The notes under the pieces: model-generated
The model's input: only the letters and a program-made list of their open reading frames with translations
What the model was told of the DNA's origin: nothing
Databases searched by the model: none
Assembly (NCBI GenBank): GCA_028281795.1
Contig: JANQJE010000035.1
Span: 1 to 32,328, forward strand
Direction: 5' to 3'
Source: Cohaesibacteraceae bacterium
GTDB taxonomy: Bacteria > Pseudomonadota > Alphaproteobacteria > Rhizobiales > MH13
DNA length: 32,328 nt
Translations under genes and position numbers: made by a program
Shown: piece by piece, positions 20,609 through 25,999 of the stretch
Layout: the number at the start of each line of letters is the position of its first letter
Position numbering within the stretch: position 1 is the first letter of the stretch

Positions 20609-21328
20609 GTGCCGCGCACTGCATTATGGACGTCCATTCGCAAGACGCTTGAACAGGAGATCACGACCGGACACTACGCCGCCGGAGACAAGCTTCCGAC
20701 CGAAGCACAGCTGTCGGACCGCTTTGGCGTCAATCGGCACACCATTCGCCGAGCGCTCGTCGACCTTGCTGACAGCGGTCTGGTTTACGCGCGGCGCGGG
20801 GCCGGGGTGTTCGTCACGCACACGCCGACAGACTATCCCATCGGGCGGCGTGTGCGCTTTACGCAGAGTATCACGGCGACCGGTCGCACGCCGGGGCGCA
20901 AGGTGCTGTTGCATGAAACGCGCGCTGCCGATCCGAAGGAAGCAGACGCGCTGGCGATCCAACCCGGGGCGCCTGTTCATGTCAGCGAAGGCCTGTCATT
21001 GGTTGACAGCGAGGTGCTGGCGATGTCGCGGGGTGTTTATCCTGCGGAGCGCTTCCCCAACTTTCTGAAGCATTTACAGGACGAGCAATCCGTCACTGCG
21101 GCGTTCAAGGCTGAAGGCGTGGCGGACTACACCCGTGCATCCACCCGCATTGATGCCAAGCTTGCCTCACCGACGTTGGCTCTGCATTTGCAACTGCCCC
21201 AGGGCGCGCCGATCCTGCGCACCATCGGGATCAATGTGGATAGCGATGGCGTGCCGATTGAGTATGGCCGCACCTGGTTCGCTGGCGATCGCGTCACGCT
21301 CACCCTGGCGGACGACGATGTCGGTTAG
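20609..21328 (+). CDS. phnF: PhnF, GntR/UTRA-family regulator of the C-P lyase operon
   Basis: A 239-residue HutC-subfamily GntR regulator. The N-terminal winged helix (residues 5-70: WTSIRKTLEQEITTGHYAAGDKLPTEAQLSDRFGVNRHTIRRALVDLADSGLVYARRGAGVFV) is followed by a UTRA ligand-binding domain (about 85-235). PhnF proteins repress phn genes until a phosphonate-related ligand or phosphate shortage is sensed. The start is GTG 20609 with GGGGAG seven bases upstream. It is divergent from phnG across 121 bases, whereas E. coli phnF lies inside the operon. Its stop overlaps the convergent stop of the next gene (TTAG). Confidence 0.93.
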   Translation: MPRTALWTSIRKTLEQEITTGHYAAGDKLPTEAQLSDRFGVNRHTIRRALVDLADSGLVYARRGAGVFVTHTPTDYPIGRRVRFTQSITATGRTPGRKVLLHETRAADPKEADALAIQPGAPVHVSEGLSLVDSEVLAMSRGVYPAERFPNFLKHLQDEQSVTAAFKAEGVADYTRASTRIDAKLASPTLALHLQLPQGAPILRTIGINVDSDGVPIEYGRTWFAGDRVTLTLADDDVG

Positions 21329-22122
21329 TCGTCTTTCGGGCCGGTGTATGTCCAGCGATAGGCGGGCGGAGTCGGCCCTTTGTTGCGGCCACCCTGTTCC
21401 ATCTGTTCCCAGGCGTGGGACAGGATGCCGACCGAACGCGACAGGCAGAAGAGGCCGCGCGCCAGGGGACCGGCGAAGCCCAGTTCGGCATAAATAACGG
21501 CCGTTGCGCCGTCTATGTTCATCGGAACGGGCTTGCCTTTGCGTGTGTTCAGAATGTCCTGGATCGCCCGGCCAATGGCGGCAAACTCACCTGTCACAGT
21601 GCCTTTGGCGGCGGCTTCATCCACCAGACCCAGAAGGCGTGGTGCACGCGGGTCAACCGGCTTGTGGAAGCGATGTCCGAAGCCCGGTATGAAGGTGCTC
21701 CGTTCTGTCTGCCATCGGTCGATGGCAGATGCCGCTGCATCGTTCAGCGCTGTGCCGGCATCGACGGCGTCTTTGATCCATCCGTAAAGCTCAACAGCCT
21801 GTTCTCCGGCCCCGCCATGAACGTCGTCCAGCATGTTCACGGCGGAGGCCATGGCGCCATTGAGGCCAAGTCCACAGGTAACGGCCATACGGGCCGCCGC
21901 GATGGACGGCGCTTGCGGGCCATGGTCAACGGCGGCGACCAGCGCGTACTCGAGAAGCCTAGCTTCCTCCGCACTTGGCAGAGTGCCGCGGGTCATCAGC
22001 CAGATCATCTGCGGAAAGGAGACGCTGCCAATCAGGTCTTCGACAGGATGGCCCCTTAGAGCGATGCGGCCCGGCTCCATATCGATGATAGCGGTGGACC
22101 ACCAATCGGAAACATCACTCAT
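21325..22122 (-). CDS. Short citrate-synthase-like protein (citryl-CoA lyase type)
   Basis: A 265-residue protein covering mainly the catalytic part of the citrate synthase fold, much shorter than citrate synthase (about 430) and close to citryl-CoA lyase. The catalytic trio appears intact: His102 in VHGGAGEQ, His150 in GFGHRFHK and Asp204 in MNIDGA. RSVGILSHAWEQ near the end holds the conserved arginine and histidine. It should therefore make or cleave a citrate-like acyl-CoA. The start is ATG 22122 inside the end of the CoA-transferase gene (eight-base overlap) with GAGGAG upstream. The frame extends to 22200, but that is less likely. The natural substrate is unknown. It probably works with the CoA-transferase: CoA is put on an acid, then C-C cleavage follows. 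Confidence 0.8.
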   Translation of the reverse strand: MSDVSDWWSTAIIDMEPGRIALRGHPVEDLIGSVSFPQMIWLMTRGTLPSAEEARLLEYALVAAVDHGPQAPSIAAARMAVTCGLGLNGAMASAVNMLDDVHGGAGEQAVELYGWIKDAVDAGTALNDAAASAIDRWQTERSTFIPGFGHRFHKPVDPRAPRLLGLVDEAAAKGTVTGEFAAIGRAIQDILNTRKGKPVPMNIDGATAVIYAELGFAGPLARGLFCLSRSVGILSHAWEQMEQGGRNKGPTPPAYRWTYTGPKDD

Positions 22123-23329
22123 CGGTCGGCTCCTCATGAACAGGCAGGCAAATGATCTCGCGTGCAGCGAGGTCGGCGATCTCATTCTCGCTGAGCCCAA
22201 GTTCTCCCAGCACGTCGGTGGTGTCTGCGCCGAGCACGGGCGGGTGGGACCTTAGACCTGGGGCATGGCCATTCATTTCGATGGGCAGCGCCGGCAGTTT
22301 GGTGGTGACGCCGTCTGACAGTTGCGTCGTCAGCAAGCGTCTGCCGGCGTTGAGATGCGGGTCATCGAACAACTGCTCCGGCTTGGCCACATGGGCAAAT
22401 GGCAGTTTCGCGGTGATGGCTTTCTCCGTCAGTTCGGCGAGCGAAAGCGCCCCGACGATTTCGCTGACAGCGGGTAGCAGCCGTTCTCTTGCTTCAATGC
22501 GCTGGTTGTTGGTGGCAAGTGTTTCATCTTCCGCCAGGTCGGGACGTTCGAAGACGTCGCAGAAGCGTGCCCAATGGCGGTCGGACGTAATACCGAGGAA
22601 CACGCGTTCGCCATCGAGGCTGATGAACTGATCATAGATCGCCCAGGCCGACACGCGCGCGGGCATCGGCGGCACCGGTTCATCGGAGAGGGCGGCATAG
22701 GCGAGGTGCTGGCCCATCAGAAACATCGCCGACTCGAACAGGTTGGAGGTGACAAGTTGACCTTTGCCGGTTGCTTCGCGTTCACGCAGTGCGGCCTGAA
22801 TGGCGATCACACCGAACATGCCGCCCATGATATCGACGACCGAGGATCCAGCGCGCAGTGGCTGGCCGGGAGGACCGGTCATGTAGGCGAGGCCGCTCAT
22901 CATCTGAACGACCTCATCGAGTGCAACGCGGTTCTCATAAGGCCCGGCAGAAAACCCTTTGAGTGACAGATAGATGAGCTGCGGAAAGGTGTCTTTCAGC
23001 GCATCGTACCCGAGCCCCAGACGCTCCATTGTTCCCGGCCCGAAATTCTCGATCAGCACGTCGGATATTGCGATGAGTTTCTTGGCCAGTGCCAGCCCTT
23101 CCGGGGTTTTCAGGTTGAGAGCGACACTCTTCTTGTTGCGGTTGAAAAAAGGGAAGTAACCCGTTCCGAAACCTTTGAGTTTGCGTGTCGGGTCGCCACC
23201 AGGAGCAGGTTCGATCCGGATCACCTCAGCGCCCAGATCAGCGAGCACCAGACCTGCCGTCGGTCCCATGACCGTGTGGCCGAAGTCGAGCACGCGCAGG
23301 TTGGCAAGTGGAAGGGTTTGGGAGGGCAT
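22115..23329 (-). CDS. Family III CoA-transferase (CaiB/BaiF)
   Basis: A 404-residue class III CoA-transferase, which moves CoA between acids through an aspartyl anhydride. LANLRVLDFGHTVMGPTAGLVLADLGAEVIRIE opens the protein and LIENFGPGTMERLGLGYDAL is the usual central block. Asp138 in NRVALDEVVQ is the expected catalytic aspartate. The start ATG 23329 gives the family length; the frame extends to 23410 with no family match. Its end overlaps the citryl-CoA-lyase-like gene by eight bases, so the two are translationally coupled. Donor and acceptor acids cannot be told from sequence. Confidence 0.9.
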   Translation of the reverse strand: MPSQTLPLANLRVLDFGHTVMGPTAGLVLADLGAEVIRIEPAPGGDPTRKLKGFGTGYFPFFNRNKKSVALNLKTPEGLALAKKLIAISDVLIENFGPGTMERLGLGYDALKDTFPQLIYLSLKGFSAGPYENRVALDEVVQMMSGLAYMTGPPGQPLRAGSSVVDIMGGMFGVIAIQAALREREATGKGQLVTSNLFESAMFLMGQHLAYAALSDEPVPPMPARVSAWAIYDQFISLDGERVFLGITSDRHWARFCDVFERPDLAEDETLATNNQRIEARERLLPAVSEIVGALSLAELTEKAITAKLPFAHVAKPEQLFDDPHLNAGRRLLTTQLSDGVTTKLPALPIEMNGHAPGLRSHPPVLGADTTDVLGELGLSENEIADLAAREIICLPVHEEPTDE

Positions 23330-23415
23330 AAGAGGCTTTCTGATCGCGCGTTGCTCTCTGCCTATCACATTCGCGTTGGGTGGGTAGCCTTGGTGCGGGC
23401 AAGCGCGCATAGGAC

Positions 23416-23454
23416 GTTCAACAGCAGGTGCACGGCATCTGCACCCTCTTGAAC
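23416..23454. repeat. Nested inverted repeats upstream of the GST gene
   Basis: GTTCAA at 23416-23421 pairs with TTGAAC at 23449-23454. Inside it GGTGCA at 23427-23432 pairs with TGCACC at 23440-23445 around a seven-base loop. The inner spacers are five and three bases. It lies 15 bases before the GST ATG and 87 bases before the divergent CoA-transferase start. It could fold in the GST leader RNA or bind a regulator dimer. The rest of the 140-base gap shows nothing clear. Confidence 0.5.
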
Positions 23455-23469
23455 ATATTGGATACTCTC

Positions 23470-24093
23470 ATGCTCACGCTTTACGCTTGGAATACCCCTA
23501 ATGGGCAGAAGCCCGCTATCTTGCTCGAAGAGCTTGGCCTTACCTACGATCTGGTGATGATCGACATCGGCAAAGGCGATCAACACAAAGACGATTTTCG
23601 GGTGATCAGTCCGAACAGCAAAATTCCCGCGCTTGTGGATGGCGAACAGACGATGTTCGAATCCGGGGCGATCCTGATGCATCTGGCGGAGAAGCATGGC
23701 AGGTTTCTGCCGATGTCAGGGCAGGCGCGCATCGATACGCTTGTCTGGACCTTCTGGCAGGTTGGCGGACTTGGGCCGATGATCGGCCAATGGGGACACT
23801 TTTCCCGTGCCGAGGAGAAAATCCCCTACGCGATCGAGCGTTATCTTGCTGAGTCCATTCGTCTTCTGGAGGTCATGGAAGAACAGCTTTCGAAGAATGC
23901 CTTTCTGGCCGGAGAGGAATACACCATTGCCGACATGATGAGCTTTCCCTGGGTAAAGGGGGGCTATCAGTTCATCAACAAGGCCTCGCCGGATCGCCTG
24001 CCGCCACTGACGGCAACGCGTGCCTGGGTCGAGACGATCGATGCACGCCCTGCTGTTCAGGCGGCACTGAAGCGTTTGAAACCGGAGTCCTAG
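23470..24093 (+). CDS. Glutathione S-transferase family protein (Ure2p/YfcG-like)
   Basis: A 207-residue GST with an N-terminal thioredoxin-like domain (residues 1-80: LTLYAWNTPNGQKPAILLEELGLTYDL). The cis-proline is in NSKIPALVDG and the glutathione-contacting ESGAI in FESGAILMHLAE. An all-helical C-terminal domain includes GEEYTIADMMSFPWV, the usual N-capping box motif. The NTPNGQK start region is like the Nu-class/Ure2p-like proteins YfcG and YghU, which often act as disulfide-bond reductases. ATG 23470 was chosen because the LTLY strand follows directly; the upstream frame would cross the nested inverted repeat. The gene is monocistronic, with a hairpin after it. Confidence 0.9.
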   Translation: MLTLYAWNTPNGQKPAILLEELGLTYDLVMIDIGKGDQHKDDFRVISPNSKIPALVDGEQTMFESGAILMHLAEKHGRFLPMSGQARIDTLVWTFWQVGGLGPMIGQWGHFSRAEEKIPYAIERYLAESIRLLEVMEEQLSKNAFLAGEEYTIADMMSFPWVKGGYQFINKASPDRLPPLTATRAWVETIDARPAVQAALKRLKPES

Positions 24094-24343: not shown

Positions 24344-25999
24344 ATGGTGCAGCAGGCGGCGCCGGTTGATGGTGCGGTCCAGGGGTTTTCTGGGCAAACG
24401 GTTAAGGTCGGCAAAAGGACGATTGTCATACCGGAGGCCGGGAAAGAACCATGGCGCAAATCGCTGTTTACGGCGCTTTGCGATGCACGTGCCAAACACG
24501 GTGGCAGCACCGTCGTCGTCAATGACTTTGCCAACACATCCCTGACATACGACCGATTGACGCTGGGTGCCATCCTGCTCGGCGACAAGCTGCGCGACCT
24601 AGGCCGGCCCGATGAGCCGCTCGGCATTCTTCTACCCAACGCATCCGGTGTGACGGCGGTCTTTTTTGCCTGCCAGGCCATAGGCCGCGTTCCAGCGATG
24701 CTCAACTATTCAGCCGGTCTGCGCAGCTTAAGGGCGGCCTGCGAAACCGCTCAGGTCAGTGTGATTGTGTCCTCTCGCGCATTTGTCGAGAAAGCGGGTC
24801 TTGAGGACCTGGTCGAAGGGCTTTCCCAAAACTGCCAGTTTGTCTGGACAGAAGATCTGCGCGCGCAGATCGGCTTCATGGATAAGATGAAGGGCATGGC
24901 GCGGCTCAAACTGGCTTTAGGTGGTGTGCAAGGTCACAAGACATCACCGGATGCGGTGGCCGTGATGCTGTTCACATCCGGAACGGAGGGCTTGCCCAAG
25001 GGGGTCGCGCTGACCCATGCCAACATGCTGGCTAACTGCTGGCAGATCGATCAAATCAGCGACTTGCAAACCGGTGATCTGTTCTTCACTGCATTGCCCG
25101 TCTTTCATGCCTTTGGACTCACGGCCGGGCTTGTCGGCGGTGTCGTGCTTGGCATTGGAGCCTACTTCTATCCCTCGCCGCTGCATTACAAGGAGATTCC
25201 CTCGCATGTGCGCAAGTCGGGCGCGAAGGTCGTCGTGTCGACCGATACGTTCGTCAACGGCTGGATCAAATCCGCCGAGCCTACCGACTTCAGTAATATC
25301 CGTATGATGGTGCTGGGCGCTGAACGTGTGCGCGAACAGACCCGGCAGCTTTTCCGGGACAAGTTCGATATCGATCTTTTGGAGGGCTATGGCGTGACCG
25401 AGGCCGCACCGGTTCTTTCCGTCAACCACGAGCACGACAACACCCCGGGTACCGCTGGATATCTTCTGCCGGCGATCGAGTACAAGATCGAGCCGATAGC
25501 CGGGCTTTCAGAGGGTGGGCGCCTGCTTGTGCGCGGGCCCAATGTGATGGCGGGCTATATCATGCATGACGCGCCGGGCGTGATCCGTCCGCTCCCGGAT
25601 GGCTGGCACGATACCGGCGACATCGTTGATGTCGATGAGGCAGGGCGTGTGCGTATCAAGGGCCGCGCCAAACGTTTTGCCAAGCTTGGCGGTGAAATGG
25701 TCTCGCTCAGTGCCGTCGAAGCCTACGTCAGCGAAGTCTGGCCGGATGAGAACCATGCCGTGGTTGCGGTCCCGGACAAGCGTAAGGGCGAGACGCTTGT
25801 GCTGGTGACGGAGAAAGACAACCCGGATCTCGATGAGGTGCGTGCATGGGCCAAGGAGCAGGGCGTTTCTGAGCTTATGCTGCCGAAGAAAGCCGTGGTG
25901 GTCGACGAGATGCCGGTGTTGGGCACCGGCAAGCTCAATTACGGCGCGCTGGATGAGATCGCCAATCCGGAAGCCGGTGATGAGGAGGCTGCTGCCTGA
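24344..25999 (+). CDS. Aas-like acyl-CoA/acyl-ACP synthetase (AMP-binding), stand-alone
   Basis: A 551-residue ANL-superfamily ligase that activates a carboxylic acid as its adenylate and passes it to CoA or acyl carrier protein. The P-loop MLFTSGTEGLPKG is at about 208-220. LLEGYGVTEAAPVLSVN (motif A5), WHDTGDIVDVDEAGRVRIKGRAKRFAKLGGEMVS (A7-A8) and the C-terminal lysine in LGTGKLNYG complete the set. The whole is strikingly like the ligase half of E. coli Aas (FHAFGLTAGL, YPSPLHYKEIP, GEMVSL), but no acyltransferase domain precedes it; the first 40 residues are unique. A likely role is recycling fatty acids onto ACP or activating a medium or long chain acid. It is transcribed alone and is convergent with the FAD monooxygenase gene, 17 bases away. 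Confidence 0.88.
   Translation: MVQQAAPVDGAVQGFSGQTVKVGKRTIVIPEAGKEPWRKSLFTALCDARAKHGGSTVVVNDFANTSLTYDRLTLGAILLGDKLRDLGRPDEPLGILLPNASGVTAVFFACQAIGRVPAMLNYSAGLRSLRAACETAQVSVIVSSRAFVEKAGLEDLVEGLSQNCQFVWTEDLRAQIGFMDKMKGMARLKLALGGVQGHKTSPDAVAVMLFTSGTEGLPKGVALTHANMLANCWQIDQISDLQTGDLFFTALPVFHAFGLTAGLVGGVVLGIGAYFYPSPLHYKEIPSHVRKSGAKVVVSTDTFVNGWIKSAEPTDFSNIRMMVLGAERVREQTRQLFRDKFDIDLLEGYGVTEAAPVLSVNHEHDNTPGTAGYLLPAIEYKIEPIAGLSEGGRLLVRGPNVMAGYIMHDAPGVIRPLPDGWHDTGDIVDVDEAGRVRIKGRAKRFAKLGGEMVSLSAVEAYVSEVWPDENHAVVAVPDKRKGETLVLVTEKDNPDLDEVRAWAKEQGVSELMLPKKAVVVDEMPVLGTGKLNYGALDEIANPEAGDEEAAA

What the first reader, a model, noticed from the sequence alone, without database searches (positions are those of the whole stretch)
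21325..23329. CoA-transferase plus short citrate-synthase-like pair: possible two-step acid-cleaving pathway
Seen: eight-base overlapping genes, a family III CoA-transferase with its aspartate (Asp138) and a 265-residue citrate-synthase-like protein with His102, His150 and Asp204. Known: citryl-CoA synthetase and citryl-CoA lyase together split citrate in some reductive TCA cycles. Inference: here a CoA-transferase activates a citrate-like or other tertiary hydroxy acid without ATP, and the partner cleaves it to acetyl-CoA or a homologue and an oxoacid.
Basis: partly seen in the sequence, partly recalled or inferred. Interest (0 to 1): 0.6.

Follow-up and report, generated by a model that had tools for sequence, protein, structure and literature searches.

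The report
CoA-transferase and citryl-CoA-lyase-like gene pair
Two overlapping genes encode an enzyme that would attach coenzyme A to an organic acid and a short relative of citrate synthase that would then split it; the pair recurs in many bacteria, often beside a citrate-type uptake system, and its true substrate is untested.

Summary
The lyase belongs to a named family (NCBIfam NF004864, 442 bits, cut-off 261); its model is closest to solved citryl-CoA lyase, ahead of citrate synthase. The pairing is strongly conserved: in 90 of 101 distinct relatives a family III CoA-transferase directly adjoins the lyase gene. Best reading: an ATP-independent activate-and-cleave module for citrate or a citrate-like tertiary hydroxy acid. 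My searches listed no paper on such a pair. A new variant of a known kind; enzyme assays are needed.

The parts
22115..23329 (-). family III (CaiB/BaiF, Frc-type) CoA-transferase, 404 aa, catalytic Asp138; lineage here called CATa
   Evidence: PF02515 362 bits; Asp138 aligned with the Asp of solved family III enzymes and D in 112 of 112
21325..22122 (-). citryl-CoA-lyase-like protein (short citrate-synthase fold), 265 aa, His102, His150, Asp204
   Evidence: NF004864 442.4 bits, cut-off 261; PF00285; model pLDDT 91, best match 6hxp Z 25.0
22115..22122 (-). 8-base overlap ATGAGTGA of the two reading frames
   Evidence: sequence; overlaps of 4 bp in 81 and 8 bp in 2 of 101 relatives
22130..22135 (-). 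probable ribosome-binding site GAGGAG before the lyase start
   Evidence: sequence upstream of ATG 22122 printed; its role is inference
23330..23427 (-). gap of 98 bases between the pair and the divergent glutathione-transferase-like gene (23428-24093, +); presumed place of the pair's promoter
   Evidence: coordinates; promoter not tested

Best explanation
The two genes form a two-step, ATP-independent activate-and-cleave module. Step 1 (inferred): the CoA-transferase moves CoA from an abundant thioester (succinyl-CoA or acetyl-CoA) through an Asp138 mixed anhydride onto a carboxylate of a tertiary 2-hydroxy acid, citrate or a close analogue. Step 2 (inferred from fold and residues): the short citrate-synthase-type protein runs the retro-Claisen half of the citrate synthase reaction with His102, His150 and Asp204, releasing acetyl-CoA (or a homologue) and a 2-oxo acid (oxaloacetate or an analogue). 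With acetyl-CoA as donor the sum equals citrate lyase; with succinyl-CoA the donor is regenerated by the TCA cycle. In most relatives of the commoner type the module sits with a tricarboxylate (TctABC) uptake system; in the window's lineage it is a free-standing two-gene unit.
For: Adjacency in 90 of 101 distinct loci and, in an evenly drawn class sample of 289 genomes, 18 carriers over the cut-off, of which 13 have the transferase directly adjacent and 1 more has it about 1.7 kb upstream. Partner exchange: the seven CATa transferases form one clade and the 87 CATb transferases another, with unlinked family III paralogs between them (quick tree), whereas the lyases paired with CATa are scattered among those paired with CATb (6 changes, at least 4 forced by supported branches): the lyase keeps a CoA-transferase, whichever lineage. 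A distant branch of the lyase family has yet other transferases beside it. TctA, TctB and TctC in 32 of 53 CATb loci with at least 5 kb on both sides against about 2% expected (52 TctA genes in 47.4 Mb of ten such genomes); order TctE-TctD divergent from TctC-TctB-TctA-CAT-lyase, as annotated in Ruegeria sp. AD91A. Fold: citryl-CoA lyase 6hxp Z 25.0 and lyase modules of ATP citrate lyase Z 22.6-24.0, citrate synthases Z 18.6 or less. Site residues invariant in 39 aligned relatives.
Against: No activity is shown for any member. The window's own pair (CATa type) has no Tct or TRAP genes beside it (0 of 2 CATa loci with 5 kb flanks; none in the wider stretches L120, L124, L174); one CATa-type operon on a Roseibium aggregatum plasmid has ABC-transporter genes instead. 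The genome has citrate synthase and aconitase genes, so citrate could be used without a lyase. The C-terminal Arg of the carboxylate site is not conserved in place. Six relatives lack a transferase and sit behind TRAP genes, some in quinate-type clusters. The transferase scores below the cut-off of every named model, so donor and acceptor are unknown.
Confidence: 0.66

Rival explanations
1. The substrate is citrate itself (a special case of the best explanation): the pair is a free-standing substitute for citrate lyase, or for citryl-CoA synthetase plus citryl-CoA lyase, giving acetyl-CoA and oxaloacetate from imported citrate.
For: NCBI's equivalog name and 442-bit score; TctABC-TctDE linkage in relatives, systems whose commonest tested substrate is citrate (PMC5812351, passages); nearest solved structures bind citrate or citryl-CoA. 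In one locus acetate kinase and phosphotransacetylase genes lie divergently beside the pair, which would fit acetate release, but no other locus examined has them.
Against: An aerobe with aconitase does not need it; third Arg displaced; TTT solute receptors vary in ligand (PMC5812351 and PMC2864759, passages); no transporter beside the window's pair.
Confidence: 0.33
2. Reverse direction: the short protein condenses acetyl-CoA with an oxo acid without hydrolysis and the transferase then recovers the CoA from the product, saving one thioester compared with citrate synthase.
For: Both half reactions are reversible in principle (established enzymology, recalled); no transporter at the window's pair.
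Against: Uptake-gene linkage in most CATb loci; patchy, accessory distribution (18 of 289 genomes) does not suit a core biosynthetic step.
Confidence: 0.1
3. The two enzymes are co-transcribed but work on different molecules, or the lyase-like protein has lost citrate-type activity.
For: Six lyase relatives occur without the transferase, and a distant branch has lost the residues of His102 and Asp204.
Against: In the window's family H67, H102, H150, R159, D204, R229 and R246 are invariant in 39 aligned sequences; the transferase lineage was exchanged repeatedly while adjacency was kept.
Confidence: 0.12

Closest known systems
[quoted passage not shown]
   Same: second enzyme: same fold, length, His/His/Asp; Z 25.0, 31% identity to 6hxp
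   Different: first enzyme here is a family III CoA-transferase, not an ATP-dependent synthetase; the host genome has citrate synthase; C-terminal Arg motif differs
ATP citrate lyase (lyase module)
   Same: same lyase fold (Z 22.6-24.0)
   Different: separate 265-aa protein, no ATP-grasp or synthetase part in the pair
Citrate lyase CitDEF
   Same: works alike in logic: transfer of a thiol carrier onto citrate, then cleavage (recalled)
   Different: lyase is PF00285, not a CitE-type protein, and the transferase is PF02515; no acyl carrier protein in the pair
Succinyl-CoA:malate CoA-transferase + malyl-CoA lyase; itaconate CoA-transferase + hydratase + (S)-citramalyl-CoA lyase
   Same: CoA-transferase followed by a hydroxyacyl-CoA lyase (recalled; the itaconate pathway also in the abstract of PMC12290011 as listed)
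   Different: those lyases are CitE/HpcH type (recalled); here a citrate-synthase fold; no hydratase in the pair
NCBIfam NF004864 citryl-CoA lyase (PRK06224.1-1)
   Same: the window protein is a member by score
   Different: the name is an annotation; I found no test of a member's activity

Membership tests
NF004864 citryl-CoA lyase | score over the curated equivalog cut-off | tested here: met
   442.4 bits against 261
Citryl-CoA lyase (EC 4.1.3.34) | short citrate-synthase fold nearest to solved citryl-CoA lyase | tested here: met
   6hxp first, Z 25.0; citrate synthases Z 18.6 or less
Citryl-CoA lyase (EC 4.1.3.34) | catalytic His, His, Asp | tested here: met
   H102, H150, D204 align with 6hxp and citrate synthase
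Citryl-CoA lyase (EC 4.1.3.34) | three Arg for the oxaloacetate carboxylates (Arg329, Arg401, Arg421' of pig citrate synthase; numbering recalled) | tested here: inconclusive
   R159 and R229 present; at the Arg421' place the family has R-x-K-G-P where citrate synthases have R-x-x-R-P and 6hxp has an Arg one place on; model confidence is low there (63-67)
Citryl-CoA lyase (EC 4.1.3.34) | cleaves citryl-CoA | not testable with these tools
   needs an assay
Citryl-CoA synthetase/lyase system | ATP-dependent citryl-CoA synthetase as gene partner | tested here: not met
   the adjoining gene is PF02515; a synthetase elsewhere in the genome was not looked for
Family III CoA-transferase | PF02515 domain and catalytic Asp | tested here: met
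   D138
Named family III enzymes (succinate-glutarate, formyl-CoA, mesaconate, carnitine CoA-transferase) | score over an equivalog cut-off | tested here: not met
   best NF052585 219.8 bits, cut-off 750; a CATb representative is also below
Citrate lyase CitDEF | CitE-type lyase, CitF transferase, acyl carrier CitD | tested here: not met
   domains of the pair are PF00285 and PF02515 only

The most novel reading that the evidence does not exclude
The lyase family is a general retro-Claisen enzyme for tertiary hydroxy acids other than citrate, served by interchangeable CoA-activating partners: two CoA-transferase lineages, and, in a clade without transferase, neighbours suited to quinate/shikimate-type rings (QuiC-like protein, shikimate dehydrogenase, a thiamine-diphosphate enzyme of the acetolactate synthase group and an acylating aldehyde dehydrogenase). 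Quinate carries the same tertiary hydroxy-carboxylate centre as citrate, so ring opening followed by CoA activation and lyase cleavage would be a ring-degradation route that avoids aromatic intermediates.
Probability: 0.22. Interest if true: 0.78.

Novelty: new variant of a known kind. Interest (0 to 1): 0.52.

Why it matters
It would give aerobic bacteria a citrate-type cleavage step that spends no ATP, would explain what the many genes now labelled citryl-CoA lyase do in organisms without a reductive TCA cycle (where the label can mislead surveys of carbon fixation), and names concrete substrates and strains in which to test it.

Tried and rejected
Citrate synthase as function: rejected by length and by fold ranking and because the genome has a separate citrate-synthase-like protein. 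A link to the neighbouring phosphonate (phn) genes: the pair is convergent with phnF (TIGR02325), and in a congener other phosphonate-like genes seem to lie nearby by eye, but I saw none beside CATa loci L015, L029 and L065 from the starts of their ORFs (not searched by profile); treated as location only. AckA/Pta beside the pair as proof of an acetyl-CoA donor: in 1 locus only. TctABC as part of the window's own system: not present beside it, although the genome has 8 TctA genes. Neighbourhood of CATa loci for a substrate hint: nothing recurrent seen. Papers: searches (open-licence PMC only) list no paper on a CoA-transferase/citryl-CoA-lyase pair; I saw listings for all, and passages only of PMC2864759, PMC6593406, PMC9616709, PMC4766312, PMC5812351, PMC9768450 and PMC9802188. 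Of 76 papers holding 'citryl-CoA lyase', 40 were listed, so this absence is not complete.

Limits: the 80 loci are the best-scoring relatives, not an even sample (the even sample is). The CAT tree is the quick one; the careful search did not finish. L091 (the window again) and L043 (apparently the same contig as L004/L121) were dropped as duplicates before the counts. ORF calls in the loci are mechanical; labels come from profiles that I built from clusters.

Full report
Observation. On the minus strand the CoA-transferase runs 23329..22115 (404 aa) and the lyase-like gene 22122..21325 (265 aa), overlapping by ATGAGTGA. Asp138, His102, His150 and Asp204 are correct. The pair stands alone: a glutathione-transferase-like gene diverges upstream (23428, +), and phnF (20609-21328, +) converges downstream with a 4-base overlap of the gene ends.

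Identity. The lyase-like protein scores 442.4 bits with NCBIfam NF004864 'citryl-CoA lyase' (cut-off 261) and belongs to PF00285. Its predicted model (pLDDT 91, pTM 0.85) matches solved citryl-CoA lyase 6hxp at Z 25.0 and the lyase modules of ATP citrate lyase at Z 22.6-24.0; citrate synthases follow at 18.6 and less (the Foldseek ranking agrees). The transferase is PF02515 and scores below the cut-off of every named equivalog, so its donor and acceptor are open.

Conservation. The collection scan returned the 80 best relatives; with genus and class searches this gave 103 lyase loci, 101 after dropping two duplicates. In 89 of 101 the transferase lies directly upstream on the same strand (81 with a 4-base overlap), in 1 directly downstream, in 3 further off on the same strand, and in 8 none lies in the fetched stretch; one of these 8, L089, has it about 1.7 kb upstream in a wider stretch (L119). 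The evenly drawn class sample is the fairer one: 18 of 289 genomes carry a lyase over the cut-off; 13 of these 18 have an adjacent transferase and 1 more has one nearby, the other 4 (L093, L097, L098, L099) do not. A search over 299 genomes of the phylum with a sister model found 28 places in 27 genomes (six of them repeats of earlier loci), 21 of the 28 with a family III transferase within the short flanks. On plasmid records 87 hold a relative; of the 11 regions that I opened, 3 carried no annotation, and in the others the names read 'citryl-CoA lyase' and 'CoA transferase' or 'CaiB/BaiF CoA-transferase family protein'.

Partner exchange. The transferases fall into two supported clades, CATa (the window's; 7 rows) and CATb (87 rows), about 32% identical to each other, with unlinked paralogs of the window's own and two other genomes between them. 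The lyases do not follow this split: CATa labels need 6 changes on the lyase tree, at least 4 forced by supported branches; for example the lyase of Ahrensia marina (CATb) is sister to that of a congener of the window (CATa) with 100/89 support. The lyase family thus kept a CoA-transferase partner while its lineage was exchanged, which is what one expects if the partner's product is the lyase's substrate. The quick method, long branches, and the fact that the shuffled labels reach 6 changes in 67 of 500 trials (scattered, not clustered) are to be kept in mind.

Neighbours. Among 53 CATb loci with at least 5 kb on each side, 32 hold TctA, TctB and TctC genes, 21 a TctD-like regulator and 19 an IclR-type regulator. 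Ten such genomes hold 52 TctA genes in 47.4 Mb, so about 2% of 20-kb stretches would have one by chance (the ten were picked from the same loci and include ones with TctA beside the pair). The frequent order, regulators divergent from TctCBA followed by transferase and lyase, is the one annotated in Ruegeria sp. AD91A. TctCBA and BctCBA are citrate systems in Salmonella and Bordetella, but ligands of the family vary (PMC5812351, passages). Neither of the two CATa loci with such flanks has Tct genes, nor do the wider CATa stretches L120, L124 and L174.

Active site. In 39 aligned relatives H67, H102, H150, R159, D204, R229 and R246 are invariant. Against 6hxp, a Sulfolobus citrate synthase and the citrate-synthase-like proteins of the window's genome and two congeners, H67, H102, H150, R159, D204 and R229 correspond. 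The arginine that in citrate synthase reaches over from the neighbouring subunit (Arg421' in pig numbering, recalled) lies in R-x-x-R-P in those citrate synthases by my reading of the tail; the window family has R-N-K-G-P or R-I-K-G-P there in the seven family rows shown. One more relative, from Streptomyces, has R-N-K-S-P. In one search the distant L106 does not keep R246, unlike, so the alignment of this tail is unsure, and the model is weak there. Either K248 or R246 takes the role or the substrate lacks that carboxylate. This is why I do not file the protein as a proven citryl-CoA lyase.

Mechanism. Shown: gene order, families, residues, conservation, partner exchange, transporter linkage in relatives. 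Inferred: translational coupling, CoA transfer from succinyl- or acetyl-CoA onto a tertiary hydroxy acid, then retro-Claisen cleavage. Citrate itself is the most likely single substrate but not more likely than all others together, since the genome has aconitase-family and citrate-synthase-like genes.

Novelty. The parts are named families; the combination of a family III CoA-transferase with a stand-alone citrate-synthase-fold lyase was the subject of none of the papers that my searches listed. I rate it a new variant of a known kind.

Noticed in passing
L077, L082, L117, L118 (and L115, L116): A supported clade of the same lyase family (six rows, 100/100) has no CoA-transferase and sits behind TRAP transporter genes; in L077 with a QuiC-like protein (502 bits, below its cut-off of 1200), shikimate dehydrogenase, Gfo/Idh dehydrogenases, an acylating aldehyde dehydrogenase and a thiamine-diphosphate enzyme. 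Azoarcus sp. KH32C has a comparable set with the transferase.
   Followed up: partly
L136, L140, L141, L149, L151, L158, L160, L172: A distant branch, its plasmid member annotated 'citryl-CoA lyase', lacks the catalytic His (I, V or F) and Asp (S, N or T) in all eight rows aligned, yet seven of these eight have a family III CoA-transferase nearby.
   Followed up: partly
[quoted passage not shown]
   Followed up: no
L173 (Agrobacterium vitis plasmid): A 36% identical lyase with CoA-transferase, TctABC genes, an isocitrate lyase/PEP mutase family gene and a citrate/2-methylcitrate synthase gene in one region.
   Followed up: no
L046, L050, L053, L057, L068, L069, L076, L085: An AtuA-family gene (PF07287 in L053) lies near the pair in these eight loci, in six of them together with TctA genes.
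   Followed up: no
L163: Acetate kinase and phosphotransacetylase genes divergent beside the pair in Ruegeria sp. AD91A; not in other loci examined.
   Followed up: yes
window 24344-25999: Stand-alone AMP-binding protein resembling the ligase part of acyl-ACP--phospholipid O-acyltransferase fusions (PRK06814, 662 bits against a cut-off of 1349).
   Followed up: no
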